From Xanthomonas sacchari (GTDB lineage: Bacteria > Pseudomonadota > Gammaproteobacteria > Xanthomonadales > Xanthomonadaceae), in the NCBI RefSeq assembly GCF_040529065.1, contig NZ_CP132343.1, positions 2,294,001 to 2,358,000 on the forward strand: a stretch of 64,000 bases of DNA, in the 5' to 3' direction. Positions within the stretch are counted from its first letter, which is position 1, and each line of letters opens with the position of its first letter. The notes beneath the pieces were generated by a model. That model saw only the letters and a list, made by a program, of their open reading frames with translations. It was not told the DNA's origin and made no database searches. Position numbers and translations under genes: made by a program. Positions 1,354-47,490 of the stretch are shown here, one piece after another.

Positions 1354-2753
1354 AGCACCTCCGAGGCGTAGTCGGCCAGGCGCGAGCGCTCGCCGCGGCG
1401 CAGGGTGATGTGCGCGCTGTGCGGCCAGGCCTTGAAGCGGTCCACCGCGTAGGTCAGGCCGGAGGTGGTCTCGGTCAGGTAGGGCGTGTCGATCTGTTCG
1501 ACGTTGCCCAGGCACACGATCTTGGTGCCGGGGCCGGCACGGGTGATCAGCGTCTTCATCTGCTTCGGCGTCAGGTTCTGCGCTTCGTCCAGGATCAGGT
1601 AGCGCGACAGGAAGGTGCGCCCGCGCATGAAGTTCATCGAGCGGATCTTGATGCGGCTGGCGAGCAGGTCGTTGGTGGCCTGGCGGCCCCAGGTGCCGCC
1701 TTCCTGGGTGTGGGTGAGCACTTCCAGGTTGTCGGTGAGCGCGCCCATCCACGGCGTCATCTTCTCTTCCTCGGTGCCGGGCAAAAAGCCGATGTCCTCG
1801 CCGACGCTCACCGTGGCGCGGGTCATGATGATCTCGCGGTAGCGCTGCTGGTCCATGGTCTGCGCCAGGCCCGCGGCCAGCGCCAGCAGGGTCTTGCCGG
1901 TACCGGCGGTGCCGAGCAGGGTGACGAAGTCGATTTCCGGATCCATCAGCGCGTTGAGCGCGAAGTTCTGCTCGCGGTTGCGCGCGGCGATGCCCCACAC
2001 CGCGTGCTGGCCGCTGCGGAAGTCGTCGACCAGCGCCAGCGTCGCCTTGCGCTCGGCGTTGACCTTGACCACGCGCAGTTCCACTTCGTCCTCGCCGGGC
2101 AGGTACAGGTACTGGTTCGGATACCAGTCCTCGTCGGCGGCCAGGGCGATCTCGTAGCAGGTGCGGCCCTTGTCGCTCCAGCTGCGCAGGTCCTGGTTGT
2201 GCTTCTGCCAGAAATTCTCCGGCAGCTCGATCGCGCCGGTGTAGAGCAGGCTGAAATCGTCGAGCGCGCGGTCGTTCTCGTAGTCCTCGGCGACCAGCCC
2301 GCTGATCGCCGCCTTGATCCGCAGGTTGATGTCCTTGGACACCAGGATCACCGGGATTTCCGGCTGCTCCTCGCGCAGCGCCAGCACCGCGGCCAGGATC
2401 TTGTTGTCCGGGGCGACGCTGCCGAAGCTGCGCCCCGGCTCGACCGGGCGCACCTGGAAGTACAGCCGGCCGATGCTGCCGGTGCTCTTGAGCTGGATGC
2501 CCTGCGGATGGCTGAGCGGGATGCCGGATTCGATCTGCTCGGCGCCGGCGCCCTCGATCAGCTCGTTGAGGAAACGGCTGACCTGGCGCGCGTTGCGGCT
2601 GACTTCGGACATGCCCTTCTTGGCATTGTCCAGTTCCTCGATCACCTGCATCGGCAGGAACACGTCGTGTTCCTCGAACTTGAACAGCGCGGTCGGATCG
2701 TGCATCAGCACGTTGGTATCCAGCACGTAGATGCGCTTGCCTCGGGTCATCAT
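1350..2753 (-). CDS. PIN-PhoH family ATPase (PhoH2/YlaK-like)
   Basis: A 467-residue protein. Residues about 8-140 form a PIN nuclease-like domain, opening with YVLDTNVLMHDPTALFKF and containing the acidic EELDNAKKG stretch. Residues about 250-467 form a PhoH P-loop ATPase with Walker A GTAGTGKT and a Walker B-like YLILDEAQNLTPKQ. Family members of this fused type are reported as RNA helicase/ribonucleases; the substrate here is unknown. Two adjacent ATG codons (2753 and 2750) are possible starts, with an AGGA just upstream. It lies 79 bases downstream of bcp on the same strand and overlaps the following lipoprotein gene by 4 bases. Confidence 0.9.
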   Translation of the reverse strand: MMTRGKRIYVLDTNVLMHDPTALFKFEEHDVFLPMQVIEELDNAKKGMSEVSRNARQVSRFLNELIEGAGAEQIESGIPLSHPQGIQLKSTGSIGRLYFQVRPVEPGRSFGSVAPDNKILAAVLALREEQPEIPVILVSKDINLRIKAAISGLVAEDYENDRALDDFSLLYTGAIELPENFWQKHNQDLRSWSDKGRTCYEIALAADEDWYPNQYLYLPGEDEVELRVVKVNAERKATLALVDDFRSGQHAVWGIAARNREQNFALNALMDPEIDFVTLLGTAGTGKTLLALAAGLAQTMDQQRYREIIMTRATVSVGEDIGFLPGTEEEKMTPWMGALTDNLEVLTHTQEGGTWGRQATNDLLASRIKIRSMNFMRGRTFLSRYLILDEAQNLTPKQMKTLITRAGPGTKIVCLGNVEQIDTPYLTETTSGLTYAVDRFKAWPHSAHITLRRGERSRLADYASEVL

Positions 2754-2832
2754 GGATTCCTGAAAGAGGAGCAGGGACGAACCATCGCTGCCTGCGGGGC
2801 AGGGCGATGCGGGGTGCGGGAAACGGCAGTGG

Positions 2833-3312
2833 TCACTGCTTGGCGGCGGCCTGCAGCGCGTCTAGCACGGCCTGGGCGTGGCCGGGGACCTTGACCTTGC
2901 GCCAGCTGCGGACCAGTTGGCCGGTCGGCGAGAGCAGGAAGGTGCTGCGCTCGATGCCCAGCACCTGGCGGCCGTACATGTTCTTTTCCTTGATCACGTC
3001 GAAGGCGCGGCACAGCGCTTCGTCGGCATCGCTGATCAGGGGGAAGCGGAAGCCCTGCTTGGCGCAGAAATTGTCGTGCGACTTCACCGAGTCGCGCGAC
3101 ACGCCCAGCACGGTGGCGCCGGCCTGTTCGAACTGCGGCAGCAACGCATTGAACTCGATGCCCTCGGTGGTGCAGCCGGGCGTGCTGTCCTTCGGATAGA
3201 AATACAGCACCAGCCAGCGGCCGGCGTAGTCGCCGAGCGTGGCGCTTGCGCCGCCGGACAGCGCCAGCGGCAAGGCCAGCGTGCTGCGGTCCAGGGTGTC
3301 GCCGTCCTTCAT
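2833..3312 (-). CDS. bcp: Thioredoxin-dependent peroxiredoxin Bcp (AhpC/TSA family)
   Basis: A 159-residue peroxiredoxin. The peroxidatic motif YPKDSTPGCTTEG carries the catalytic cysteine, and the later VSRDSVKSH segment is typical of the BCP/PrxQ group. There is no cysteine five residues after the peroxidatic one (a threonine-glutamate-glycine follows). The next cysteines are in NFCAKQ and EALCRAF, so the resolving residue is not obvious. The enzyme reduces hydrogen peroxide and organic hydroperoxides in the cytoplasm using thioredoxin. The ATG at 3312-3310 gives the normal length. It follows the gcvR-like gene by 65 bases, as in E. coli. Confidence 0.92.
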   Translation of the reverse strand: MKDGDTLDRSTLALPLALSGGASATLGDYAGRWLVLYFYPKDSTPGCTTEGIEFNALLPQFEQAGATVLGVSRDSVKSHDNFCAKQGFRFPLISDADEALCRAFDVIKEKNMYGRQVLGIERSTFLLSPTGQLVRSWRKVKVPGHAQAVLDALQAAAKQ

Positions 3313-3377
3313 GGGGTGTCCTCCGCGTGCATCGCCATCATCCGCGTTCGATTGCGTCGGTGTCCAGCGCGGCGCAC

Positions 3378-3953
3378 TCAGAACTTCATCGGATCCATGA
3401 TCGCGTCCAGGTTGAGGTGGTCGCAGAACTCGAGGAAGTCGTCGCGCAGCGCGGCGATGTGCATGTTCGCCGGCACCCCGATCGTCACCTGCGCCGAGAA
3501 CATCTCCGCGCCGGTCTGCATGGCGCGGTAGCGCGTGCTCTGCAGGTTCTCGATGGTGATGCCCTGGCGGTCGAAGAAGTCGGCCAACTGGAACAGGATG
3601 CCGGGTTTGTCGGCGGCGATGACTTCGACGATGTACGGCAGCAGGTTGGACTGCGCCTGCTTGGCGCCGGTGCGGTACCACACCAGCTTCATGCCTTCCT
3701 CGCGGTCGAGGCGGGTGAGCATGGCTTCGAGCTTGGCCACCGAGTCCCACGAGCCGGTCGCCAGCGCGGTCACCGACACGTCGCGGCCGACCGTGGCCAG
3801 GCGCGCATCGACGAGATTGCAGCCGCTGTCGGCGATGCGACGCGTCACCGGCAACAAGGGCGACTCCGGATGCGTCGTGTAGGCGTTGATCAGGAGGTGG
3901 TTTTCGGTCGGCGCGGGCCGGGGCGTGGTGTCAGTCAAAGGGGCTTCCGGCAT
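3378..3953 (-). CDS. gcvR: Glycine cleavage system regulator GcvR-like, double ACT domain protein
   Basis: A 191-residue protein with two ACT domains. The first is around residues 18-90 (LLINAYTTHPESPLLPVTRR...), the second around 105-180 (IVEVIAADKPGILFQLADFF). The length and two-ACT arrangement match GcvR, which in E. coli binds glycine and antagonises GcvA. The position supports this: it is divergent from dapA and directly upstream of bcp, the same neighbourhood as in E. coli. The ATG at 3953-3951 is used; longer in-frame extensions run through the dapA promoter region and look spurious. No gcvA-type gene is in the window, so the regulatory role is inferred. Confidence 0.78.
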   Translation of the reverse strand: MPEAPLTDTTPRPAPTENHLLINAYTTHPESPLLPVTRRIADSGCNLVDARLATVGRDVSVTALATGSWDSVAKLEAMLTRLDREEGMKLVWYRTGAKQAQSNLLPYIVEVIAADKPGILFQLADFFDRQGITIENLQSTRYRAMQTGAEMFSAQVTIGVPANMHIAALRDDFLEFCDHLNLDAIMDPMKF

Positions 3954-4119
3954 TGCGTAAGGCTGAACGGCATCCGGGCGGTCGCCCGGCATGGTGTGCA
4001 GCATACTTGCCCGCGCTTTCGGGCCGCAAGTAACATGCGGGGCGACCTTGCCGCGCGTGCGGGGCCGACCCGTCCGCGCAGCCTGCGCGGCCCTTTTCTC
4101 CCAGCGAGCACCCGGCATC

Positions 4120-5990: not shown

Positions 5991-6089
5991 CGTACCCTCA
6001 CCCCAACCCCTCTCCCGAGGGGAGAGGGGCTCCGGCTTCTTCCTTCTCCCCTCGGGAGAAGGTGCCCCGAAGGGGCGGATGAGGGTACG
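5991..6089 (+). repeat. Small inverted-repeat element, copy b
   Basis: Second copy of the element described at 5705-5803, with intact CGTACCCTCA/TGAGGGTACG ends. It carries CCCGAGGGG in place of CCCGGAGGG in the first stem. It is part of the tandem 287-bp array. Confidence 0.85.
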
Positions 6090-6277: not shown

Positions 6278-6375
6278 CGTACCTCACCCCAACCCCTCTC
6301 CCGAGGGGAGAGGGGCTTCGGCTTCTTCCTTCTCCCCTCGGGAGAAGGTGCCCCGCAGGGGCGGATGAGGGTACG
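6278..6375 (+). repeat. Small inverted-repeat element, copy c
   Basis: Third copy of the element described at 5705-5803. Its left end has lost one base (CGTACCTCA). It lies in the incomplete third unit of the tandem array. Confidence 0.82.
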
Positions 6376-35861: not shown

Positions 35862-38800
35862 ATGGAACGTCGCGGCGCAGGGATGGGCTCGGTCGTGGGT
35901 TTGCTGAAGCGGGCGGCGCATGCGCCCGCGCAGGGTTGGCGGCGCATCGTGGGCAGAACGGTGGCGGCCTTGTTGCTGACCCTTCTGGCCTGCACGTCTG
36001 GCGCCACGTCCTACGTTTACGACGCGCAGGGGCGTCTGGTCGCCGTGAGCAACGATGCCGGTGCCAGTGCCCGCTATCGCTACGACACGATGGGCAATAT
36101 CGTCGCTGTCGAACGCGTCTCCAGCGGAACCTTGGCAGTGCTGGGCTTCAGTCCGGCGCGCGGTGCGGCGGGCGATCGCGTGCGGATCCAGGGGCAGGGA
36201 TTTTCCACCGCTGCGTCTGCCAACAGCGTGACCTTCAATGGACAGGCAGCGACGGTGCTGGCCGCCAGCGCACGCGAGTTGACGGTCCTGGTGCCTGCCA
36301 CTGCCAGTACCGGTCCGATCTCCGTGGCCGTGGCCGGGCAGAGCGCAAGCAGTGCGCAGCAGTTCCTGGTCGATGCCAACCTGCGTCAGCCGACCATTAC
36401 GGGCGTATCGCCGTTGATCGCCAGCGCAGGTACGGCGATCACCGTCGATGGGCAGAACCTGGCGCCGGTCGCCGGGCAGACCACGGCGAAGCTGGATCGC
36501 AAGACCGCGGTGCTCTCGAGCGCCACCGGCACGCGCCTGGTCTTTCCGGTGCCGGGCAGGAGCGGCAGCGGTCCGGTGACCGTCACCACGCCTTACGGCA
36601 GCGCCACGAGCAGCCAGGATGTGCTGGTGGTGCCGAGCAGTGTGTCGTCCGTCGGCATCGCCAGCGTCACGCGCCTAACCCTGGATGCCGCCGCCGTCGA
36701 CGTGGCGGTCGCCAACGCGGGTGGGTCTGCCGCGGTCCTGTTCACCGGCATGGCCGGTGATTACCTCAGCGCTCAGTTCCAGTCGCTGGGGTCCACGACG
36801 TTGAACTACCTGGTGTTCGGCACCGATAACGTGGAGATTGCCAGTGGACTGGTGAATGCGAACCAGCCCACCCTGCATCTGCCGCGATTGAAGGTGGGCG
36901 GCACCTATCTGTTGCTGCTTACACCGAGCACCTCTTCCGCCAGTTGGAAGATGGCAGTGGAGCATGCCGGAGTGCTTGCGTTGGACGGCGCCGAAACCAG
37001 CGTTGCCACGTCGCTCGCCGCGCAATCGAAGCGCTACACCTTTCTTGCCCAGGCCGGAAGCAGGCTGGGCCTGGCGGTGGCCGAGCAGACGCCGGCCGGC
37101 AGCGGCTGGGGAACCGCCTTGGTGCAGGTGTTCGACGCCGACGGCGTCAATCTGGGCTATCAGTACTGCAACCAGGCCAACAACGGCTGCGCACTCAACA
37201 TCGCCGCGCCCAGGACCGGCGTGTATCAGGTGTTGCTGACGCCCGGCACCAGCGGTGCACGCACCCTGCGTCTGAATCTGTGGCTGTCCTCGGATCTATT
37301 GCAGGCATTGCCGAAGGACCAGGACGTGCTGGCCGAAACGTCGCGTCGAGGACAGAACCTGCGTCTGTCGTTCGGTGCCGTGGCCGGCGATGCCTTTGCG
37401 TTGCAGGTAGCCGCCCAGACAACCGTGCCCGCTGGCCGTGATGTGTACTACCGCGTTTACGCGCCTGATGGCACCAGTGTTGCCTCGATGGCGGTGCGCG
37501 CAGCAGGCACCACCTATGTGACGGCGAAGACAAGCGGCACCTATCAGGTACTGGTGGATCCCGGGTTCGGAGAAACCGTGCGGTTGCAGATGCGGCTCAG
37601 CACTGGAAACGTGGGTAGTGGCGGTGGTGGGCTCGATGACGCCACCAGCGCATTCGCCACGCAATTGCCGGGCGACAGCGTGTACTTCACTTTCTCCGCG
37701 ACCGCCGGGCAGAGCCTGGGACTCGGCATCAGCGAGCTGCAGTCCAACGAAAGCGGCCCGCTCAACCTCACTATCTATGGCCCTGCAGGCGCGCCGATGG
37801 CCGGTGCCGCCTGCGAGGTGGCCAATGACGGATGTGATGTGAATCTGCCGCAACTGGCGGCGGGTCGTTACGGAGTCCTGGTCGCTCCTGCCACGACGAC
37901 GCAGACGATGCGCTTCAAGGCGACCCTGTCCACCGACCTGGCGCTTTCCTTGACGCGGGATGCGGTCAGCCAGGTCAGCATCGGCCGGCGCGGGCAGAAC
38001 GCAGTGCTGTCGTTCCAGGCGGGTGCCGGCGACGCACTGGCAGTGCAGGTGTCGGAGCAGACCACGACTCCGGCGAACGGCACGGTCTACTACCGGGTGT
38101 ACCAGCCTGATGGCACGGCCTTGTCGTCGATGGCGGTCTCCGGTTCGGGCACCCTGACGATGAACACACCTGTCGCCGGGGCTTACCGACTGTTCGTCGA
38201 TCCGCGCAATGGCGCCACCATGTCCGCCAAGGTGCTGGTGACCACCGGGAGCGCGGGCGGGCTGCAACTGGATGGCAGCAGCGGCGTGTACAGCGGCGCC
38301 GCCGGTCAAAGCGTGTTCTTCAGTTTCAGCGCAGCGGCCTCGCAGAATCTGGGATTGGGCATCGGCGATCTGAACCTGAGCAGCGGGACCTATGTCAACG
38401 TCAAGATCGCCAATCCCAACGGCTCCACGCTCACGACCGCGACCTGCTACGCCGCCAGTGGCTGCGCCTTCAATCTGCTCAACCTCACCGCGGGCAACTA
38501 TGGTGTGACCGTGAGTCCGCAATCGGGCTCCCAGAGCATCGCGTTCAAGGCGACTCTGTCCACAGAGGTCACTGGCTTCCTGCAGAAAGATGCGTCGAGT
38601 TCCGTGGACATCTCGCGCTATGCCCAGAATGCGCGCCTGACGTTCACCGGGACCGCCGGCGAGAGCCTGGCCTTGCTCGCCGCCGACGTCGCGACCAGGC
38701 CGGCAGGCCGCGACGTGGTCTATGCGGTGTATCGGCCGAACGGCGCGTTGTGGAAGAACGTGACGGCCAGCGGCAATGTCATTCTGGCCATGCCCAATCT

Positions 38801-40796
38801 CCCTGAGACGGGAAGCTATCGGGTGTTCGTCGATCCGGCGGGCGGCGCGTTGTGGTCGGCACGCTTGAAACTCTCCACGGGCCAGGACGGCAATGTCGAA
38901 CTGGACGGCGCAGGTGGCAGCTATCAGACGCCTGCAGGCCAGGGCGTACATTTCTCCATCGACACCCAGGCCGGCCAGAATCTGGGGCTGGGGATCACCG
39001 ACATTGCGGTGAGTTCGGGCAATTACTTCAATATCGCCGTCTACAGCCCGAACGGTACGACCTTGTACAGCGGCAGCTGCTACGTCCAGGATGGCTGTTC
39101 GTTGCCGCTGAGGAACACCTTGGCGGGACGCTACAGCGTGGTGGCGACACCGGCCTCGGCGAGCCAGACGATCCAGTTCCGCGCCGTGCTGTCGTCCGAA
39201 TTGCTGGATCAGCTGACCCGCGATCAGCCCTTGCATCTGGCGCTGGCCCGGTATGGGCAGAATGCGCGGCTCCGCTTCCAGGCGCAGGCGGGCGAGTCGT
39301 TGATGCTGCTGGTCGCGGCGCAGACGACACTACCCTCCGGTCGTGATGTGGTATATCGCGTGCTACGGCCGGATGGTGCTGTCTGGAAGGCGGCGACTAT
39401 CAAGGTGGGCGATGCCATCAATCTGATCAGTATCCCGACGTCTGGCGAGTATGCAATCCAGGTCGAGAGCAGGACCGGAAGTCCCCTGGAATCGGACATC
39501 ACCCTTTCCTCCGGAATCTCGCTGCCGATCGATGGCCCTCCGTCGCATGTGGTGACACGCTTGCCGGCGCAATACAAGCACTTCTCCTTCATCGCCAGTC
39601 AGGGCCAGAACCTGGGACTGGGCATCAGCGGCATCCAGATCGTGGGCTCAGGGTGGCAGCGCGTCGTTGCGTCCGTCTACAAGGCGGATGGCAGCACGCT
39701 GGCGAGCGGATACTGCGACGTGGAGCGCGGCGGCTGCGATTTCGATCTCGTCAACCTCGCTGCAGGCAAGTACGCAGTACTGATCACTCAAGAAGAGGAG
39801 CAGGCAGCAACGTACGACGTGACGCTTTCCAGCGATCTCGCCTTGAACCTGCAGCGCGACACGCCGCTGGCCGTCTCCGTCGCCAGACGCGGGCAGAACG
39901 CCCGGTTGAGCTTCCAGGGGCAGGCGGGCGACAAACTCGCCGTGCTGGTGCAGAACCAGGCGACCACGCCCGCGGATGGCACCAGCTATTACAGCGTCTA
40001 CCAGCCGAATGGCACCCTGCTCACGTCCGGATCGACGCGTACCGGTACTGCGATCGGCCTGGGCAGCCTGCCGACGACCGGCCAGTACAGCGTGGTGGTC
40101 GATCCGCAGTATGGGCAGACGATCGACACCACGGTCGCCTTGTCCACCGGCACGTCAGTGGCCGTGGACAGCAGTCGCACGTTCGCTGCGGGTCCGCCTG
40201 GCGCGGGCATTTTCTTCTGGTTCGATGCGCAGGCCGGGCAGAAGCTCGATTTCGGACTCGATCAGATCGCACTATCAGGCAACGGCTACGCTTGGGTCTA
40301 TGCGACGTTCTATCGTCCGGATGGCAGCAAGGTCTTCTCCAACACGAATTGCTTCCGTACCTACGGCTGCGGATTCTCCATCGATGCCGCGCAAGCCGGA
40401 CGCTACGGCGTCGTGGTCGTTCCTTCGTCGGAAGACCAGAGTTTCGCTCTGACCGCCTCGGTATCCAGCACCGTCGTTGGCACCTTGGCGTGGGATGTCC
40501 CGCAATCGATCGCCCTGGACAGGCACGGCAAGACTGCCACGCTGTCCTTCAGCGGCACGGCAGGGCAGGGCGTGCTGCTGCGGGTGGTCAATCAGACGAC
40601 CACGCCGGTCGGACGGTCGGTGACCTATGCGCTGTATCGGCCTGACGGACAGTCGTACAGATCGCTCAGCGCCAGCGCCGGCAGCAGCGACCTGAGCTTC
40701 CCGGCGCTCCCGACGAGCGGCACCTATCGATTGCGGATCGTGCCCGAGGACGGCGTCACTGCGGCGATGGACATCACTTTGGACAGTACGCCCTAG
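35862..40796 (+). CDS. Giant secreted protein: YD pair, two IPT/TIG-like domains, six ~211-residue repeats
   Basis: 1644 residues. The hydrophobic signal ends LLTLLACTSG, so it may be a lipoprotein. Residues 51-88 hold a single RHS-type YD pair (YVYDAQGRLVAVSND, YRYDTMGNIVAVER). Two IPT/TIG-like domains follow at about 92-175 (VLGFSPARGAAGDRVRIQG) and 177-262 (ITGVSPLIASAGTAITVDG). From about residue 374 to the end there are six repeats with starts at nt 36981, 37632, 38268, 38901, 39528 and 40164. Each has an A half (GQNLGLGI) and a B half (RxGQNARLSFxGxAGD, QTTxPAGRDVxYxVYxPDG, GTYxVxVDP) resembling pre-peptidase C-terminal beta-sandwiches. There is no catalytic motif. The RHS toxin gene follows 63 bases later; a structural or surface-partner role is inferred. 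Confidence 0.8.
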   Translation: MERRGAGMGSVVGLLKRAAHAPAQGWRRIVGRTVAALLLTLLACTSGATSYVYDAQGRLVAVSNDAGASARYRYDTMGNIVAVERVSSGTLAVLGFSPARGAAGDRVRIQGQGFSTAASANSVTFNGQAATVLAASARELTVLVPATASTGPISVAVAGQSASSAQQFLVDANLRQPTITGVSPLIASAGTAITVDGQNLAPVAGQTTAKLDRKTAVLSSATGTRLVFPVPGRSGSGPVTVTTPYGSATSSQDVLVVPSSVSSVGIASVTRLTLDAAAVDVAVANAGGSAAVLFTGMAGDYLSAQFQSLGSTTLNYLVFGTDNVEIASGLVNANQPTLHLPRLKVGGTYLLLLTPSTSSASWKMAVEHAGVLALDGAETSVATSLAAQSKRYTFLAQAGSRLGLAVAEQTPAGSGWGTALVQVFDADGVNLGYQYCNQANNGCALNIAAPRTGVYQVLLTPGTSGARTLRLNLWLSSDLLQALPKDQDVLAETSRRGQNLRLSFGAVAGDAFALQVAAQTTVPAGRDVYYRVYAPDGTSVASMAVRAAGTTYVTAKTSGTYQVLVDPGFGETVRLQMRLSTGNVGSGGGGLDDATSAFATQLPGDSVYFTFSATAGQSLGLGISELQSNESGPLNLTIYGPAGAPMAGAACEVANDGCDVNLPQLAAGRYGVLVAPATTTQTMRFKATLSTDLALSLTRDAVSQVSIGRRGQNAVLSFQAGAGDALAVQVSEQTTTPANGTVYYRVYQPDGTALSSMAVSGSGTLTMNTPVAGAYRLFVDPRNGATMSAKVLVTTGSAGGLQLDGSSGVYSGAAGQSVFFSFSAAASQNLGLGIGDLNLSSGTYVNVKIANPNGSTLTTATCYAASGCAFNLLNLTAGNYGVTVSPQSGSQSIAFKATLSTEVTGFLQKDASSSVDISRYAQNARLTFTGTAGESLALLAADVATRPAGRDVVYAVYRPNGALWKNVTASGNVILAMPNLPETGSYRVFVDPAGGALWSARLKLSTGQDGNVELDGAGGSYQTPAGQGVHFSIDTQAGQNLGLGITDIAVSSGNYFNIAVYSPNGTTLYSGSCYVQDGCSLPLRNTLAGRYSVVATPASASQTIQFRAVLSSELLDQLTRDQPLHLALARYGQNARLRFQAQAGESLMLLVAAQTTLPSGRDVVYRVLRPDGAVWKAATIKVGDAINLISIPTSGEYAIQVESRTGSPLESDITLSSGISLPIDGPPSHVVTRLPAQYKHFSFIASQGQNLGLGISGIQIVGSGWQRVVASVYKADGSTLASGYCDVERGGCDFDLVNLAAGKYAVLITQEEEQAATYDVTLSSDLALNLQRDTPLAVSVARRGQNARLSFQGQAGDKLAVLVQNQATTPADGTSYYSVYQPNGTLLTSGSTRTGTAIGLGSLPTTGQYSVVVDPQYGQTIDTTVALSTGTSVAVDSSRTFAAGPPGAGIFFWFDAQAGQKLDFGLDQIALSGNGYAWVYATFYRPDGSKVFSNTNCFRTYGCGFSIDAAQAGRYGVVVVPSSEDQSFALTASVSSTVVGTLAWDVPQSIALDRHGKTATLSFSGTAGQGVLLRVVNQTTTPVGRSVTYALYRPDGQSYRSLSASAGSSDLSFPALPTSGTYRLRIVPEDGVTAAMDITLDSTP
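36981..40793 (+). repeat. Six tandem ~633-bp coding repeats
   Basis: Unit starts at 36981, 37632, 38268, 38901, 39528 and 40164 are marked by an (L/I/V)D(G/D/S) codon triplet. Spacings are 651, 636, 633, 627 and 636 bases. The units are diverged in sequence but keep the Gly-Gln-x-Leu and Tyr-x-Val-x-x-Pro landmarks, so this is an old protein-level duplication rather than a recent DNA repeat. Confidence 0.82.
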
Positions 40797-40859
40797 AACA
40801 CCGACGCGATTTCAACGAACGGACGCAGATCGGCGGCAGGCATGGAGCGGAGCGAGCAT

Positions 40860-43800
40860 ATGACGTGGTTCAACAGCGCATGGAAAAGCGTGATCCTGGG
40901 TGGGGTACTGGGCGCGCTGGCGTCGACGGCCGCCTCCCAACAGCTGGTCTGGTCGACGGCGGCCATGCCGGCTGTCGGCGTTGGCGCTGTCCCTGCAGTG
41001 ATCGGGCAGTGGCATACGACCGCATTGGCCGATGGCAGCGAGTTGGCGCTGGCGCCCGACGGGCGTTTCCTGCGCCATCGCGTGCCCGGTCGGCGTGCGC
41101 GCGAGATCGCGCTGCCATCGGCGCGCATCGACGCCAGCGTCACCTTGCTGCCGAGCGGGCGCGTGCTGGTCTGGGGAGGGCGCGATGCCAGGGGCCGACT
41201 GCAGGACGGCGGCGCGTGGTTCGATCCCACGAGCCTTTCCGTGCAGCCCGCGACGGGACTGAGCCTGCGCGCGCGCTATGGACACACCGCCACGGTACTG
41301 ACCGATGGTCGCCTCCTGCTGGCCGGCGGCACCGGCGATGGCGCCGGCGCGCAGGTGTGGGACGAAGCCAGCGATCGGGCGATCACCCTGCCTGCGGATC
41401 TGCCGGGTGGCGGCAACGCAAGCTCGCGCCTGCTTGCTGATGGCCGTGTGGCGTTGCCGGCGTCTCGAAGCGCCCAGCGCATCACCAGCGATGCGGTGTT
41501 CGATCCGCTCGCGGGGGCGTTTCTTCCGTATCCGGCCAGCATCGCGGAGCAGCCAGGCGCGCCGCGGCTCGCCGGCAGCGTGCCGGTGCAGGGGGCAGCG
41601 GGCGTTGCGCCGACCGCGCGGCTCGCGTTGCGCTTCTCGCGTCCGCTGCACATGCCCACGTTGTCCGCGCGCACCGTCACCCTGGTCGGTCCGGAGGGAC
41701 GCGTCGCGGTGCGCATCGCGCCGGTGGAGCAGGGCCGTCTGCTGTTCGTGCAGCCGCGTCAGGCCTTGTTCCCGGATTCCCATTATACCTTGATGGTCGA
41801 GGGCGCGCGTGCCGCATCGGGCGATGCCGTTCCGCTGATCGCCCTGGATTTCCGCACCACCGCCTACGACAGCAACGGAAATCCGGTGGCGCATGCAATG
41901 ACCACGCCGACACAAGCAGGCGCTGCACCCAGCGTGCAGATGACTGGTGCAGGCACGTCGGCCTCCTGTGCCAATGACGGTGTGCCGTGCCGCGCGCACG
42001 GCCTGTTGGTGGACGGCGTCTGGTACCCGGGACAGGACAATACCGACAGCCGCTGGCGCATCTATGGCGCCTCGCAACAGCCGGAACACAACGCCCGCAT
42101 TGCGCGGATCGCCGCGACCTTCCACGTGACGATGGTGCGCGGGCGTGTGGTGCGGGTGGACCAACAACCCGTGGCCGGGGTCGAGGTCAGCATCGGCAAG
42201 GAGCGCGCGCTTACCGACAAGAACGGCTGGTTCACCCTGTTCGATGTGCCGGCGGGGCACCAGGAACTCTACGTCGACGGCAGCACGGCCAACACGGCCG
42301 GCGCCGAATACGGTCAATTCGTCGTCGGCACCGAAGTCGCCGCCGGCCGATTGAACGAACTCGGCTATCTGCTGCATCTGCCACGCATCGCAGCGCGCGA
42401 CAAGATCCGGATCCCGTCGCCGACCGTCCAGGACATGGTCGTTGGCCACCCGGATATTCCCGGCCTGCAATTGCGCATTCCCAAGGGCACCGTCGTGCTG
42501 GACCGCAAGGGCCGCCTGGTGACCGAACTGGCGATCGTGCCGACGCCGGTCAATCGGGCGCCGTTCCCGGTCACCGAAAACCATCCGATGGCGTTCACGG
42601 TCGAGCCGGGCGGCGCGCAGATCCGCGGACTCGACCCCGGCGCCAACAACGGCATCCAGGTCTACTACCCCAACTACGACGGCTACGCCGCGGGTACCCA
42701 GGCCAATTTCTGGATGTACGACCCGCGCGATGGCTGGCGCGTCTACGGCAAGGGCACCGTTTCGGCCGACGGCAAGCATTTCGTTCCCGAGCCTGGCGTG
42801 GCCTTGCACCAGACCATGGGCGGCATGTACAGCGTGCCCAGCAACGACCCGCCCAGCGAGGCCGGGTTGCCGCCGGATGGGCATTGTTGCGGCACCCCCG
42901 GCAGCGGCGGCGTCGCCAATGCGGCCGATCCCATCGACCTGAAGACCGGCGAATTTGTTCATTCGGAAACCGACCTGCAGATCGCGGACGTGACGGCGCT
43001 GAGCCTCTCGCGCAGCTACCGTCCCCACGACATGAAGCAGCGTGAGTTCGGCATCGGCACCGCGTCCAACTGGGGCTACTATCTCCACAATCCGGGCGGC
43101 ACCTACGATTCGCTCGATCTGGTGCTGCCGACCGGCGCCTATATCCGCTTCGATCGGGCCTCCGGTTCCGGCCCGCGTGGCGAGTGGCGCCAAGCCGGTT
43201 CGACCACACAGTATGCGGGCGCCGTGCTGCAGTCGGTCTACGATTCGGACCCGTTGCAGCCGTGGGGCCGCGGCTTCCGCATCACCCTGCGCGACGGCAG
43301 CCGCATGCAGTTCTCCAGCTACATGGACACCCGCCTGCGCTGGCTGGAAGACCGCTATGGCAACCGCACCACGCTGCTCTACGATGCCGGCTTGGTCGCG
43401 CGCATCGTCTCGCCCAGCGGGCGCTACATTGGTCTGGAGTACGACACCCGCAATCGCGTTGCAGCGGCGACCGACAACGCCGGCAACCGCTGGACCTATG
43501 CCTACGACAGCAATGGCTTGCTCGCCACGGTGGGATATCCGGATGGCGGCAGCAAGACATACGCGTATCAGACCAGGACCCAGAACAACGCGCTGGCGCA
43601 GCACCGGATGCAGTCCATCACCGACGCCCGCGGCAAGCGCGTTCTGCTCAACGAGTTCGAGGTTGTCAACGGTGTTTCCACGGGCAGGGTAATCAAGCAG
43701 ACCCAGGCCGACGGCGGCGTCTTCGTCATCGACTATGCGCATGTCGACGTCGGCAGTACCGGCGTGCTCGTCACCAGTCCCGACGGCAGCAAGCGCCGCG

Positions 43801-46286
43801 TCGTGTTCGACGGCAACAGTGCCTACCCGAAGACCGACATCCTGGCCTACGGCACCGACAAGCAACAGACGTACAGTTTTGAGCGCAACGTCTACGGGCA
43901 GGTCACCGCCAGTATCGACCCGCTCGGCCGTCGCACCGAGTATCGCTACGACGCGGGCGGGCGACCGCTGCAGGTCACGCTGCTGGCGGGCACCACACAG
44001 GCGCGCGTGTCCAGCCTCAGCTACACCAGTGACGGCGACCTGCAATCGGCGACGGATCCGCTCGGGCGGGTCACGCGCCTGGACTACGGCGCCAACCGCT
44101 GCCTGACCGCGGTCACCGATCCTGGCGGCCGCACGGCGCGCTTCGCCTGCGATGGCGCGGGCCTGCCGTTGAGCGCGACCAATGCGATCGGCCAGACGAT
44201 CGCCTTCCAGTACGCTGGCTACGATCTGGCCGGCATGGTCGATCCGTTGGGGCGCAGCACCCGCTTCCAGTACGACAGCCTCGGCAGGGTAACCGGCAGC
44301 CGCGACGACCTGGGCAACGCCACGCGCCAGGAATACGACGCGCTTGGCCGTGTCAGCAAGGCCTACGACGCCGCCGGCAATGTGACCGAATTCGGCTACG
44401 ACAAGAACGGCAACGTCGTGGCGGTCCTGTTGCCGCACGGCAACGGCATCACCTATACCTACGACGAGCGCAACCGTCCGCTGACCCGTACCGACGCGCT
44501 GGGCCAGTCCGAGACCTGGACCTACGACACCATGGACCGTGTCGCCAGCTACACCGATCGCAAGAGCCAGAAAAAGACCTTCACCTACGACGTGCTCGGG
44601 CGCCTGTCGGTGGTCACCGAGGCCGACGGGCGTACCCAGACCTTCACTTACGACGCCGGCAACCGCCGTGTCGCGCTGGTCGATTCGGCAGCGGGAACCC
44701 TGAGCTGGGAATACGACCTGTTCGACCAGGTCATCAAGGCCATCACACCGCAAGGCAACATCGTCTACGAATACGACGCCGCGGGCCGCCGTACCAAGAT
44801 GATCGCGGCCAACCAGGCGGCACTGGAATACCGCTACGACGACGTCGACCGCTTGCGCGGCCTGCTGCAGGGGAGCGAGACCGTGGCGTTCGATTACGAC
44901 GCCGCCGATCGCCTCACCGAGACCACGCTGCCCAACGGCGTCAAGACCGGGTATGCCTACAACACCGCCAACCAGAACACTGGCATCGCCTGGCTCAAGC
45001 CGGACGGCACGGCCCTGGGCGAGATCGGCTACGGCTACGACCAGGTCGGCCGCCTGGTGGCGCAGACCGGCAGCTTTGCCCCGCAGGCGCTGCCGGCGGC
45101 CCGCAGCGGCAGCTTCGACGACAACAACCGGCAAACCCAGGCCGATGGACAGGCGCTCAGCTACGACGCCAACGGGAACCTGGTCTCCGACGGCGTGCGC
45201 ACCTACGTCTGGAACGCACGCGACCAATTGGTCGAGATCAAACAGGGAACGGCAAGCATCGCCAGCTTCGGCTACGACCCGCTGGGCCGAAGAGTAAGCA
45301 AGACCGAAGGCGGACAGACGATCAGCTATCTGTACGATGGGCTGGACGCGGTGCAAGAAACCCAGGGTGGCGCCGTCAACCCGATCCTGACCGGGCTGGG
45401 CATCGACGAGCGCTATGCGCGGAACGAAGCCAGCGGACGTGCGTATTTCCTGAGCGATGCGCTTGGCAGCACGCGTGCACTTACCAATGCCAGCGGTTCC
45501 TTGATCCAGCGCTACGACTACACCCCTTACGGACAGACCAGTCAAGCCAGCGCAGGGACCACCAACCCGTATCAGTACACGGGGCGGGAGAGGGATGCGA
45601 GTGGGCTTTATTACTACCGTGCACGTTACTACTCCTCCAGCGTTGGACGCTTCTTGAGTGAGGATTCGATTGGACTGGCTGGAGGAGTGAATCCATATGC
45701 TTATGTGAATGGTGATCCCTTGAGCTATCGGGACCCTTCCGGTAACTGTCCAATGTGCTTGATTCCCGTTGTTTGGGGGCTCATTGAAATTGGGTTGAGC
45801 ATTTATGATATTTATGACACCGGTAAGACATTGCTAGATCCATGTGTTGGTCGTGGCGAAAAAGCCGCCTCTGTGGGTCTCCTGCTGGTGGGGATGGCTT
45901 TGCCTGGAGGTGGCTATGGTGCGATTGGTAGAAAAGTCTCAAAGAAGGCAATAGGTTTTGCTTCTGGACTGGCAGATACTGCTATGTCAGGTATGAGAGG
46001 TGGGGGTGGACACGCAATTCGTCATCTTGAGGGAGTGGTAATACCGAATGTAGGTTCACTTCAGTCTAGAGTTGATGCATTTAAAAATATCGCTAGGCCT
46101 ATTTTGGAAAATCCAACACATACTGCTGATTGGAAGATCGGCGCTACCCAAGGTAGAGCATTTCTTGGTAACGTGGGTGGCCATGATGTTGTAATTGTGG
46201 TGGCAAAAGATGGTCCACTTGAAGGTAAGGTTATCTCGTCATTTATTCCAGATGCAAATCAACTTAAGATAATTTTGGAGAGGTAG
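40860..46286 (+). CDS. RHS-repeat polymorphic toxin with variable C-terminal tip
   Basis: About 1808 residues from the ATG at 40860, which has GGAG upstream and begins a Sec signal; 40842 is an alternative. Kelch-like motifs lie at about 100-215, an Ig-like segment at about 237-334, a carboxypeptidase-regulatory-like domain at about 428-475, and the RHS N-terminal module at about 690 (DPIDLKTGEFVHSETDL). YD repeats run from about 824 to 1480, and the RHS core spans about 1517-1628 (YFLSDALGSTRALT, YQYTGRERDASGLYYYRARY, GRFLSEDSIGLAGG, DPSG). The last ~180 residues are a unique tip containing GGGGHAIRHLEG and GKVISSFIPD, suggestive of an RNase-type toxin. Coding GC drops sharply from about 45590. 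The next gene is a candidate immunity protein. Confidence 0.88.
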   Translation: MTWFNSAWKSVILGGVLGALASTAASQQLVWSTAAMPAVGVGAVPAVIGQWHTTALADGSELALAPDGRFLRHRVPGRRAREIALPSARIDASVTLLPSGRVLVWGGRDARGRLQDGGAWFDPTSLSVQPATGLSLRARYGHTATVLTDGRLLLAGGTGDGAGAQVWDEASDRAITLPADLPGGGNASSRLLADGRVALPASRSAQRITSDAVFDPLAGAFLPYPASIAEQPGAPRLAGSVPVQGAAGVAPTARLALRFSRPLHMPTLSARTVTLVGPEGRVAVRIAPVEQGRLLFVQPRQALFPDSHYTLMVEGARAASGDAVPLIALDFRTTAYDSNGNPVAHAMTTPTQAGAAPSVQMTGAGTSASCANDGVPCRAHGLLVDGVWYPGQDNTDSRWRIYGASQQPEHNARIARIAATFHVTMVRGRVVRVDQQPVAGVEVSIGKERALTDKNGWFTLFDVPAGHQELYVDGSTANTAGAEYGQFVVGTEVAAGRLNELGYLLHLPRIAARDKIRIPSPTVQDMVVGHPDIPGLQLRIPKGTVVLDRKGRLVTELAIVPTPVNRAPFPVTENHPMAFTVEPGGAQIRGLDPGANNGIQVYYPNYDGYAAGTQANFWMYDPRDGWRVYGKGTVSADGKHFVPEPGVALHQTMGGMYSVPSNDPPSEAGLPPDGHCCGTPGSGGVANAADPIDLKTGEFVHSETDLQIADVTALSLSRSYRPHDMKQREFGIGTASNWGYYLHNPGGTYDSLDLVLPTGAYIRFDRASGSGPRGEWRQAGSTTQYAGAVLQSVYDSDPLQPWGRGFRITLRDGSRMQFSSYMDTRLRWLEDRYGNRTTLLYDAGLVARIVSPSGRYIGLEYDTRNRVAAATDNAGNRWTYAYDSNGLLATVGYPDGGSKTYAYQTRTQNNALAQHRMQSITDARGKRVLLNEFEVVNGVSTGRVIKQTQADGGVFVIDYAHVDVGSTGVLVTSPDGSKRRVVFDGNSAYPKTDILAYGTDKQQTYSFERNVYGQVTASIDPLGRRTEYRYDAGGRPLQVTLLAGTTQARVSSLSYTSDGDLQSATDPLGRVTRLDYGANRCLTAVTDPGGRTARFACDGAGLPLSATNAIGQTIAFQYAGYDLAGMVDPLGRSTRFQYDSLGRVTGSRDDLGNATRQEYDALGRVSKAYDAAGNVTEFGYDKNGNVVAVLLPHGNGITYTYDERNRPLTRTDALGQSETWTYDTMDRVASYTDRKSQKKTFTYDVLGRLSVVTEADGRTQTFTYDAGNRRVALVDSAAGTLSWEYDLFDQVIKAITPQGNIVYEYDAAGRRTKMIAANQAALEYRYDDVDRLRGLLQGSETVAFDYDAADRLTETTLPNGVKTGYAYNTANQNTGIAWLKPDGTALGEIGYGYDQVGRLVAQTGSFAPQALPAARSGSFDDNNRQTQADGQALSYDANGNLVSDGVRTYVWNARDQLVEIKQGTASIASFGYDPLGRRVSKTEGGQTISYLYDGLDAVQETQGGAVNPILTGLGIDERYARNEASGRAYFLSDALGSTRALTNASGSLIQRYDYTPYGQTSQASAGTTNPYQYTGRERDASGLYYYRARYYSSSVGRFLSEDSIGLAGGVNPYAYVNGDPLSYRDPSGNCPMCLIPVVWGLIEIGLSIYDIYDTGKTLLDPCVGRGEKAASVGLLLVGMALPGGGYGAIGRKVSKKAIGFASGLADTAMSGMRGGGGHAIRHLEGVVIPNVGSLQSRVDAFKNIARPILENPTHTADWKIGATQGRAFLGNVGGHDVVIVVAKDGPLEGKVISSFIPDANQLKIILER

Positions 46287-46287
46287 T

Positions 46288-46746
46288 GTGGATTTTTTTG
46301 AATTTATTTCCGTGTATGGTAGTGATGGTATGTCAGTAATTTGCTATGGGGTTTTTGATGGGGATGACCTGAATGCGGCCTATGTCAAGTTAAAGGATCA
46401 AAATAGCTTTGTCGGGAAATCTAGTGAGTACTGCATGATTGATGATGATTGGCCTAATGGAGTATTGCTCATAGATAATGTAGTAGATTCTAAGGAGGAA
46501 GTAATGCTGGCAATCAGTGATGGGTTTACAAGGATGTTTAATGCTGGTCCATGTAAATTTTCTTTATTGATGTATGATGGTGCTTTTAACGGTTATGAGA
46601 GTTTGTTTTCCGAGAATATTTTTGAGCAAATTTATGCATTTTCATTTGGTGAAAATAAGTGTGTAATCAATCTTGATGCCTCATTGCTGTCTTCCGAGCT
46701 ATGGAAGAATGTGGTTGCCAACTGTCGCCTAAGAGCTGCATCATAA
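46288..46746 (+). CDS. Candidate immunity protein for the RHS toxin tip
   Basis: A 152-residue acidic protein starting at GTG (46288), 1 base after the RHS stop, with GGAGAGG upstream. It has no signal or membrane segment, so it is probably cytoplasmic. Sequence such as YGVFDGDDLNAAYVKL, EYCMIDDDWPNGVLLIDN and FSENIFEQIYAFSFGENK matches no family I know. The codon use is markedly AT-rich, like the toxin tip and unlike the rest of the window. Small size, acidic composition, location and shared atypical base composition are the usual hallmarks of an immunity gene. The function is inferred from these only. Confidence 0.68.
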   Translation: MDFFEFISVYGSDGMSVICYGVFDGDDLNAAYVKLKDQNSFVGKSSEYCMIDDDWPNGVLLIDNVVDSKEEVMLAISDGFTRMFNAGPCKFSLLMYDGAFNGYESLFSENIFEQIYAFSFGENKCVINLDASLLSSELWKNVVANCRLRAAS

Positions 46747-46829
46747 GAACCGATAGTTTCATCTTGTAGACGCATCTTGCGGCGTCTCCGTGTTATCTCT
46801 GATGACAACAGTTCAAGATCCACGCCGGG

Positions 46830-46935
46830 GCGGCTGGCGCTCTGTTACGACACCAATGGCAACTTGGTCCAATGGCTTAGGTACCTGCGTCTAGAACGAT
46901 TGCGACCTCAAGCAGGGAACGGCGAGCGAGGTGAT
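46830..46935 (+). pseudogene. Decayed RHS core remnant 1
   Basis: GGCGCTCTGTTACGACACC and AATGGCAACTTGGTC, followed by TACCTGCGTCTAGAACG and AGCAGGGAACGGC, align with the intact RHS gene at 45149-45256 (coding QALSYDANGNLVSDG...VWNARDQLVEIKQGTAS). There are many substitutions and small indels. The frame carries ALCYDTNGNLVQ and then runs into unrelated AT-richer sequence ending at 47034 (FDAFEIVNDEYIAGRK), possibly the tail of a lost toxin or immunity gene. Confidence 0.7.
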
Positions 46936-47072
46936 TCTGTCAATGGTAGGCGCTGGATGCTCGAGGCAGCGGTCCTCGGTGATTTTGATGCGTTCGAAAT
47001 AGTTAATGATGAATACATAGCAGGGCGCAAGTGATGTCGATGGCTTGATATAACGATTGACTTTTGGGCATG

Positions 47073-47490
47073 GCAGCTTCGCCCCGCAGGCGCTGCCGGC
47101 GGCCCGCAGCGGCAGCTTCGACGACAACAATCGGCAAACCCAGGCCGATGGACAGGCGCTCAGCTACGACGCCAACGGGAACCTGGTCTCCGACGGCGTG
47201 CGCACCTACGTCTGGAACGCACGCGACCAATGGTCGAGATCAAACAGGGACGGCGAGCATCGCCAGCTTCGGCTATGACTCACTTGGCCGAAGAGTGAGC
47301 AAGACCGAAGGCGGGTGGACGATCAACCATCTGTACGATGGGCTGGACGCGGTGCAGAAGTCCCAGGGCGGCACCGTCAACCCGATCCTGACCGGGCTTC
47401 GCATCGACTAGCAAGATCTGCGTCGTGAGGCCGATGGACTTGCCCGCCTCCTGGGCGACGCGCTTGGCACCCGGCAGTCTCTACGGCACG
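47073..47490 (+). pseudogene. Frameshifted RHS core duplicate (remnant 2)
   Basis: This segment is nearly identical to 45070-45410 of the intact RHS gene, from GGCAGCTTCGCCCCGCAGGC to CCGGGCTTCGCATCGACTAG. It has two single-base losses, in GACCAATGGTCGAG (one T) and AACAGGGACGGC (one A), and a stop after GLRID. Beyond the stop the homology continues in weaker form: DGLARLLGDALGTRQSL corresponds to SGRAYFLSDALGSTRAL. No start codon or tip follows. It is a displaced, inactive piece of an earlier RHS 3' end. Confidence 0.85.

What the first reader, a model, noticed from the sequence alone, without database searches (positions are those of the whole stretch)
45590..46746. AT-rich toxin tip and candidate immunity gene at the end of an RHS protein
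The RHS core ends with a DSIG...DPSG pair and is followed by ~180 residues found nowhere else in the window. These comprise two hydrophobic stretches, then a final ~95 residues beginning GGGGHAIRHLEG and ending KVISSFIPDANQLKIIL. A His-rich GGHxxxRH entry with a late basic/Ser strand is typical of small RNase-type polymorphic toxins, but I cannot assign a family. A 152-residue acidic gene starts one base after the stop. Both are far more AT-rich than their surroundings. Seen: layout, composition, motifs. Known: RHS toxins carry exchangeable C-terminal toxins with adjacent immunity genes. Inferred: toxin type and immunity role.
Basis: partly seen in the sequence, partly recalled or inferred. 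Interest (0 to 1): 0.78.

Follow-up and report, generated by a model that had tools for sequence, protein, structure and literature searches.

The report
Swappable RHS toxin tip with immunity
A large bacterial protein ends in an interchangeable, probably RNA-cutting toxin, followed at once by the gene that probably protects its owner; the same pair sits on a different delivery protein in Neisseria and matched no catalogued toxin family searched, although this kind of system is well known.

Summary
The RHS gene (40842-46286) ends in a 180-residue tip that occurs once in this genome. A 152-residue acidic gene starts one base after its stop. This is the most AT-rich stretch of the window.

Comparison supports the toxin-immunity reading. 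The 96-residue end domain recurs full-length in a Lysobacterales MAG (on another RHS protein, 72%) and in Neisseria bergeri (on a PT-VENN protein, 67% over 93 residues); a truncated copy lies in a fourth genome. A relative of the downstream gene follows directly in 4 of 4 (weakly supported in the fourth). In a sister species the same locus carries other tips but keeps a 51% immunity relative without the toxin. A congener shares only the hydrophobic pre-toxin segment. A decayed RHS-core copy (47072-47413) lies behind the pair, as tip displacement predicts.

No meaningful match to toxin or immunity came from Pfam, NCBIfam, PHROGs, PADLOC or PDB sequences. The toxin model (pLDDT 84) is helices, four strands, helix, with only weak hits to BECR ribonucleases, so the RNase mechanism is likely but unproven.

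Verdict: a real, apparently uncatalogued toxin/immunity family within a well-known kind of system.

The parts
40842..46286 (+). RHS polymorphic toxin gene (1814 aa); N-terminus looks like a Sec signal by eye (no predictor run)
   Evidence: YD/RHS repeats, DUF6531, Big_5 and weaker Kelch-like matches
45519..45743 (+). RHS-associated core ending in DPSG (residues 1560-1634), the likely junction with the exchangeable tip
   Evidence: TIGR03696, E 2.7e-24, residues 1560-1634; DPSG at 1631-1634
45744..45995 (+). Hydrophobic pre-toxin segment (residues 1635-1718), shared with a congener's RHS that ends in another toxin
   Evidence: 52% over 54 aa, 58.5 bits, with the tip of G238/L016; GC about 48%
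45996..46283 (+). Toxin domain (residues 1719-1814), predicted BECR-like RNase; H..RH near its start, SSFxPD near its end
   Evidence: 72% in L022 and 65-67% in L023; model pLDDT 83.6; no profile match
46288..46746 (+). Candidate immunity gene (152 aa, GTG start, pI 4.1)
   Evidence: Linked homologues in L022, L023 and, weakly, L027; orphan 51-52% homologue in L015
47072..47413 (+). Decayed copy of RHS core 45069-45412 (two one-base deletions, in-frame stop), relic of an earlier end of the gene; weaker similarity reaches 47469

Best explanation
This is the business end of an RHS polymorphic toxin plus its immunity gene, acquired as one AT-rich block. Recombination in the RHS core put a new pre-toxin/toxin/immunity block onto the gene and shunted an older end downstream, where a decayed core copy remains. 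The RHS shell would be exported (probably by Sec), and the tip freed near DPSG and passed into a competing bacterium with help from the hydrophobic pre-toxin. The 96-residue basic domain would act in the cytosol, most likely as a small metal-independent ribonuclease of the BECR type, with the conserved H..RH helix near its start and the serine strand near its end lining the active site. The acidic 152-residue protein would bind the basic face and block it in the producing cell. Shown by sequence: block structure, exchange, toxin-immunity linkage, core relic. Inferred: export route, cleavage, entry, RNase chemistry, neutralisation by binding.
For: The toxin domain occurs on three carriers and its homology starts sharply where the tip's end domain starts. 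A downstream-gene homologue follows at 1, 10 and 0 bases in the three full-length loci and overlaps a truncated toxin in a fourth. N. bergeri carrier has PT-VENN and a ShlB-type transporter nearby; the MAG carrier is RHS. Orphan immunity relative and different tips at the same locus of the sister species. Pre-toxin shared with a different toxin in G238. Core relic. Basic toxins pI 9.4-11.2, linked partners pI 4.1-4.6 in the three full-length loci. Model pLDDT 83.6, pTM 0.79: helices, four strands, helix; weak fold hits to BrnT, CdiA-CT BWH57 and a sequence-specific RNase and to phage minor capsid/nuclease tips.
Against: No fold match at E 0.001 in the PDB or viral library; PDB rank 1-3 and 5 are designed curved-sheet proteins and rank 4 a PC4 homologue. 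The helix holding H..RH is the weakest part of the model (residues 9-12 under 50, block 11-20 mean 64). The alignment had only three sequences. No profile names the domain. The sister's orphan immunity relative is less acidic, pI 5.0. The immunity model is poor (pLDDT 64.8). Activity was not testable.
Confidence: 0.7

Rival explanations
1. A real toxin-immunity pair, but the toxin is not a BECR RNase: another enzyme (a DNase, or one that modifies nucleotides or proteins) with an alpha+beta fold of its own.
For: No fold match at E 0.001 and no profile match; top PDB ranks are unrelated folds.
Against: Order of elements, small size, basic charge and conserved His/Arg/Ser fit BECR RNases; three BECR-type toxins among the 50 listed PDB hits.
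Confidence: 0.22
2. The hydrophobic pre-toxin is the toxic part (membrane pore or ionophore) and the end domain is an accessory.
For: One strongly hydrophobic stretch in the tip; ionophoric CDI toxins exist (PMC11630599, abstract start in the listing only).
Against: The pre-toxin occurs with a different end domain and a different downstream gene in G238, whereas the immunity homologue travels with the end domain, also in N. bergeri where similarity begins only at the end domain.
Confidence: 0.03
3. The downstream gene is not an immunity gene and the RHS tip acts on eukaryotic (host) cells.
For: Zhang et al. 2012 suggest that Ntox43 RHS toxins, which lack adjacent immunity genes, mainly target eukaryotes (PMC3482391, passage); the bacterium's lifestyle is unknown here.
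Against: The gene is linked to the toxin in 4 of 4 loci (the fourth weakly) and is kept without the toxin in the sister species.
Confidence: 0.04
4. The tip is an inactive relic.
For: The locus already holds a decayed core copy, and a truncated toxin exists in G1038.
Against: The frame is intact and 51 of 96 positions are invariant across three distant full-length copies, including the H..RH motif; the start of the partner gene is one base behind.
Confidence: 0.04

Closest known systems
RHS tip displacement (Jackson et al. 2009, PMC2935791; passages)
   Same: New AT-rich end on a conserved core, older core fragment displaced downstream, different ends at the same locus of relatives
   Different: Their loci are enterobacterial; this toxin domain is not named in the passages seen
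TpsA/TpsC toxin exchange in Neisseria (Arenas et al. 2013, PMC3848433; passages)
   Same: The N. bergeri copy sits at the end of a PT-VENN protein with a small ORF directly behind it
   Different: The window's copy rides on an RHS protein; whether this toxin is one of their 11 C-terminal groups was not seen (figures and supplements not read)
CdiA-CT/CdiI of Serratia marcescens BWH57 (PDB 7m5f; PMC8616854, passages)
   Same: BECR RNase-type toxin with H, E, H in one helix proposed as active site; acidic partner surface against a basic toxin; weak Foldseek hit (rank 13)
   Different: No detectable sequence similarity; E 0.52, TMq 0.33
Ntox41, predicted BECR clade (Zhang et al. 2012, PMC3482391; table passage)
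   Same: Signature [RK]H, [KR], [ST]xxP is met by RH, several K/R and SFxP/SSFIP
   Different: Alignment not available; a three-part signature is weak; no immunity family is listed for it there

Membership tests
RHS polymorphic toxin system | YD/RHS repeats and RHS-associated core followed by a variable tip | tested here: met
RHS polymorphic toxin system | Small gene directly behind the tip, linked to the same toxin elsewhere | tested here: met
   weaker in the fourth locus
RHS polymorphic toxin system | Displaced core fragments or orphan immunity genes | tested here: met
RHS polymorphic toxin system | Toxicity of the tip and neutralisation by the partner | not testable with these tools
   needs expression
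BECR ribonuclease fold | Helices then a four-stranded antiparallel sheet; significant structural match | tested here: inconclusive
   Order of elements fits; no PDB or viral match at E 0.001, weak BECR hits at ranks 12, 13 and 25; sheet orientation not inspected
BECR ribonuclease fold | RNase activity | not testable with these tools
   needs biochemistry
Ntox35 (PF15534) and Ntox50 (PF15542) | Match to the family profile | tested here: not met
   No Pfam match at E 10; one Ntox50 sequence compared by hhalign, probability 0.4%; no Ntox35 sequence obtained
Ntox41 | Residue signature [RK]H, [KR], [ST]xxP | tested here: inconclusive
   Present by eye; no profile or alignment known to be held to test it
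CDI/two-partner-secretion toxin (N. bergeri copy only) | PT-VENN pre-toxin domain with toxin and immunity ORF behind it | tested here: met
   PF04829 E 1e-9; the N-terminus lies off the contig

The most novel reading that the evidence does not exclude
An uncatalogued BECR-type RNase toxin clade (H..RH first helix, S-x-F-x-P-D last strand) with its own immunity family, rare but exchanged between two delivery systems and two bacterial lineages: RHS proteins of Lysobacterales and VENN two-partner-secretion proteins of Neisseria, leaving orphan immunity genes behind.
Probability: 0.5. Interest if true: 0.5.

Novelty: new member of a known kind. Interest (0 to 1): 0.38.

Why it matters
It adds a toxin/immunity pair that the profile libraries searched do not hold. 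One toxin domain is seen on two carrier systems, with a readable record of tip displacement and an orphan immunity gene at the same locus of a sister species. That makes the locus a clean test case for how toxin ends move between delivery systems and how lineages may stay protected after losing the toxin. The kind of system itself is well established.

Tried and rejected
Weak hits dropped as chance: G192 (E 0.007, 30% over 61 aa; no RHS-like frame in the stretch by eye); G601 and G469 (E 0.001-0.005, stops inside); PDB sequence hits at E 0.08 or worse; sub-threshold family hits such as NOGCT, Frankia-40 and polynucleotide kinase.

Searches without a relative: viral contigs (each rests on two short peptide patterns), plasmids, phages, E. 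coli genomes with the N. bergeri DNA (DNA only). A text search of the held papers for GGHAIRH, HAIRHLE and SSFIPD gave one unrelated paper.

Ntox35 sequences could not be obtained: 0 of 200 and 0 of 83 genomes, controls silent too. Ntox50: 1 of 200 genomes, no similarity to the toxin.

The immunity model (pLDDT 64.8, pTM 0.64) gave only PII-like and similar weak fold hits, none at E 0.001; not used.

A type VI route was set aside: the 13 Pfam matches of the RHS protein include no PAAR or VgrG domain. T6SS genes in the genome were not searched. A toxin-immunity complex was not modelled. No signal-peptide predictor was run.
Full report
What was checked. The RHS ORF runs 40842-46286 (+), 1814 residues. 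Family profiles find RHS repeats, DUF6531, Big_5 and weaker Kelch and carboxypeptidase-regulatory-like matches, and the RHS-associated core at residues 1560-1634. DPSG is residues 1631-1634; exactly 180 residues follow. The last 186 residues match only themselves in the own genome. A 152-residue ORF starts with GTG at 46288, one base after the stop. Toxin domain and downstream gene have 43% and 38% GC in a window of 68%; the lowest 1-kb GC of the window is here, 0.417, against 0.621 for the next lowest at least 1.2 kb away.

Behind the pair, 47072-47413 is a decayed copy of RHS core 45069-45412: 99% identical over its first 160 bases, with two one-base deletions and, at its end, an in-frame stop. 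Between lies an 85-residue ORF without a convincing family (46777-47034). Jackson et al. 2009 (PMC2935791, passages) explain strings of core fragments behind an intact rhs gene by displacement of an old tip by a new one.

Relatives of the toxin domain (residues 1719-1814). In 297 genomes of the family, 3 matched at E <= 0.01: the own, G061 (72% over 96 aa) and one weak hit dropped as chance. In 398 genomes of the phylum, 3 matched: the own and two weak hits with stops inside, dropped (this used the two-row alignment A1). In 397 genomes of the order, 2 matched at E <= 0.001: the own and a partial match in G1038 (columns 39-90, E 1.5e-9). These samples overlap and are drawn from larger groups. 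A pattern scan of one genome per species (84,980 species by the tool's description) gave 31 stretches, of which 2 encode relatives: the same MAG as G061, and Neisseria bergeri (67% over 93 aa). Among 83 genomes of the N. bergeri family 1 matched, N. bergeri itself. Plasmid, phage, viral and E. coli collections gave none (immunity protein also none). The domain is rare in what was searched; the pattern scans rest on two short motifs each.

Linkage with the downstream gene. In the window, the MAG and N. bergeri a homologue of the 152-residue protein starts 1, 10 and 0 bases after the toxin stop, taking the ATG at 6302 as the MAG's start. Window versus N. bergeri: 27% over 137 aa, 54 bits; MAG versus N. 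bergeri: 32% over 151 aa, 63 bits. In G1038 only the C-terminal part of the domain is left, and the gene overlapping its stop is weakly similar (28% over 69 aa, 27 bits; hhalign probability 84.7%). So 4 of 4 toxin-bearing loci have the partner, the fourth on weaker evidence. The partner searched in 297 genomes of the family gave 3 matches: own, G061 and G281.

The sister species. G281 is 95% identical over the N-terminal RHS query (where 6 of 20 genus genomes matched). At the same place, beside a GH3 gene with the same start as the window's, it carries an RHS with a different end, two displaced core pieces with other ends, and last in the row a relative of the immunity gene (51%; 52% over 147 aa, 159 bits) with no toxin match in that genome. 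Of the 18 genus genomes listed, only the own has the toxin. The orthologous protein of G238 shares the pre-toxin (52% over 54 aa) but ends in another domain with another gene behind it. In a local BLAST of the window's tip against 7 tips from five loci, 2 matched: the MAG (the toxin) and G238 (the pre-toxin only). One of the two G202 tips printed was not in that set; by eye it lacks the motif. Pre-toxin and toxin-plus-immunity are thus separable modules, and an orphan immunity relative remains where the toxin is absent.

A second carrier. In N. bergeri the domain ends a protein with a PT-VENN pre-toxin domain (E 1e-9; its N-terminus lies off the contig), and a ShlB-type transporter gene lies at 2329-4116 of the same locus. 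Similarity between window and N. bergeri starts sharply at residue 85 of the 186-residue tip and runs to its end (66% over 99 aa). The MAG's carrier has the RHS-associated core (E 6.7e-18). Arenas et al. 2013 (PMC3848433, passages) showed exchange of toxic ends on such proteins in meningococci; whether this toxin is one of their groups was not seen.

What the toxin may do. No profile of Pfam, NCBIfam, PHROGs or PADLOC and no PDB sequence matches toxin or immunity meaningfully. An AlphaFold2 model from three sequences has mean pLDDT 83.6 and pTM 0.79, with a short helix, a long helix, four strands and a last helix. Foldseek against the PDB lists 557 matches at E <= 10, none at 0.001. Of the 50 shown, the first ranks are designed curved-sheet proteins and a PC4 homologue; BrnT is rank 12, CdiA-CT BWH57 rank 13 and a sequence-specific ribonuclease domain rank 25. 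I count these three as BECR: the first two are described so, or as structural homologues, in PMC8616854 (passages), the third by recall. In the viral library phage minor capsid proteins (ranks 1 and 5) and a phage nuclease (rank 6) match with probability 0.94-1.00 but E 0.018-0.092. In the three full-length copies 51 of 96 positions are invariant, among them H6, R9, H10, H42 and S82; H42 is also kept in the G1038 fragment, S82 is not marked invariant there. The review PMC9086364 (passages) states that most structurally characterised BECR CDI toxins were recognised from structure only. Basic toxins (pI 9.4-11.2) with acidic linked partners (pI 4.1-4.6) fit a partner that covers an RNA-binding face; the sister's orphan relative is less acidic (5.0). 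I put a toxin-immunity pair at about 0.93 and, given that, a BECR-type RNase at about 0.7. The helix with the H..RH motif is the least certain part of the model, which limits any active-site claim.

Novelty. The kind of system is well known. Toxin and immunity are not in the profile libraries searched, and their motif strings do not occur in relevant held papers. The short published signature of Ntox41 (PMC3482391, table passage; the only held paper with that word) is present, so this may be a branch of that predicted clade; that could not be tested. I file it as a new member of a known kind.

Noticed in passing
window 35862-40796 (+): A 1644-aa gene ending 45 bases before the RHS gene, with TIG and PPC domains and an RHS-repeat match; a possible partner in export or display.
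   Followed up: partly
window 46777-47034 (+): An 85-aa ORF between the immunity gene and the core relic, at intermediate GC, without a convincing family; perhaps the rest of an older immunity gene.
   Followed up: partly
L015 1-9500 (genome G281): RHS array with three different ends: the attached one, an HNH-like one (LHHWFTPRSAGG, by eye) and a short broken-looking one, with small genes between.
   Followed up: partly
L016, tip of the RHS ending at 6086 (genome G238): Same pre-toxin as the window followed by another end domain (VWKFGTTQNPNKRYPKQYL...) and another small gene.
   Followed up: partly
L027 1498-2150 (genome G1038): A truncated toxin end with an overlapping immunity-like gene; the script saw no RHS-repeat-like motif in the 14 kb around it: a stranded remnant of the same module.
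   Followed up: yes
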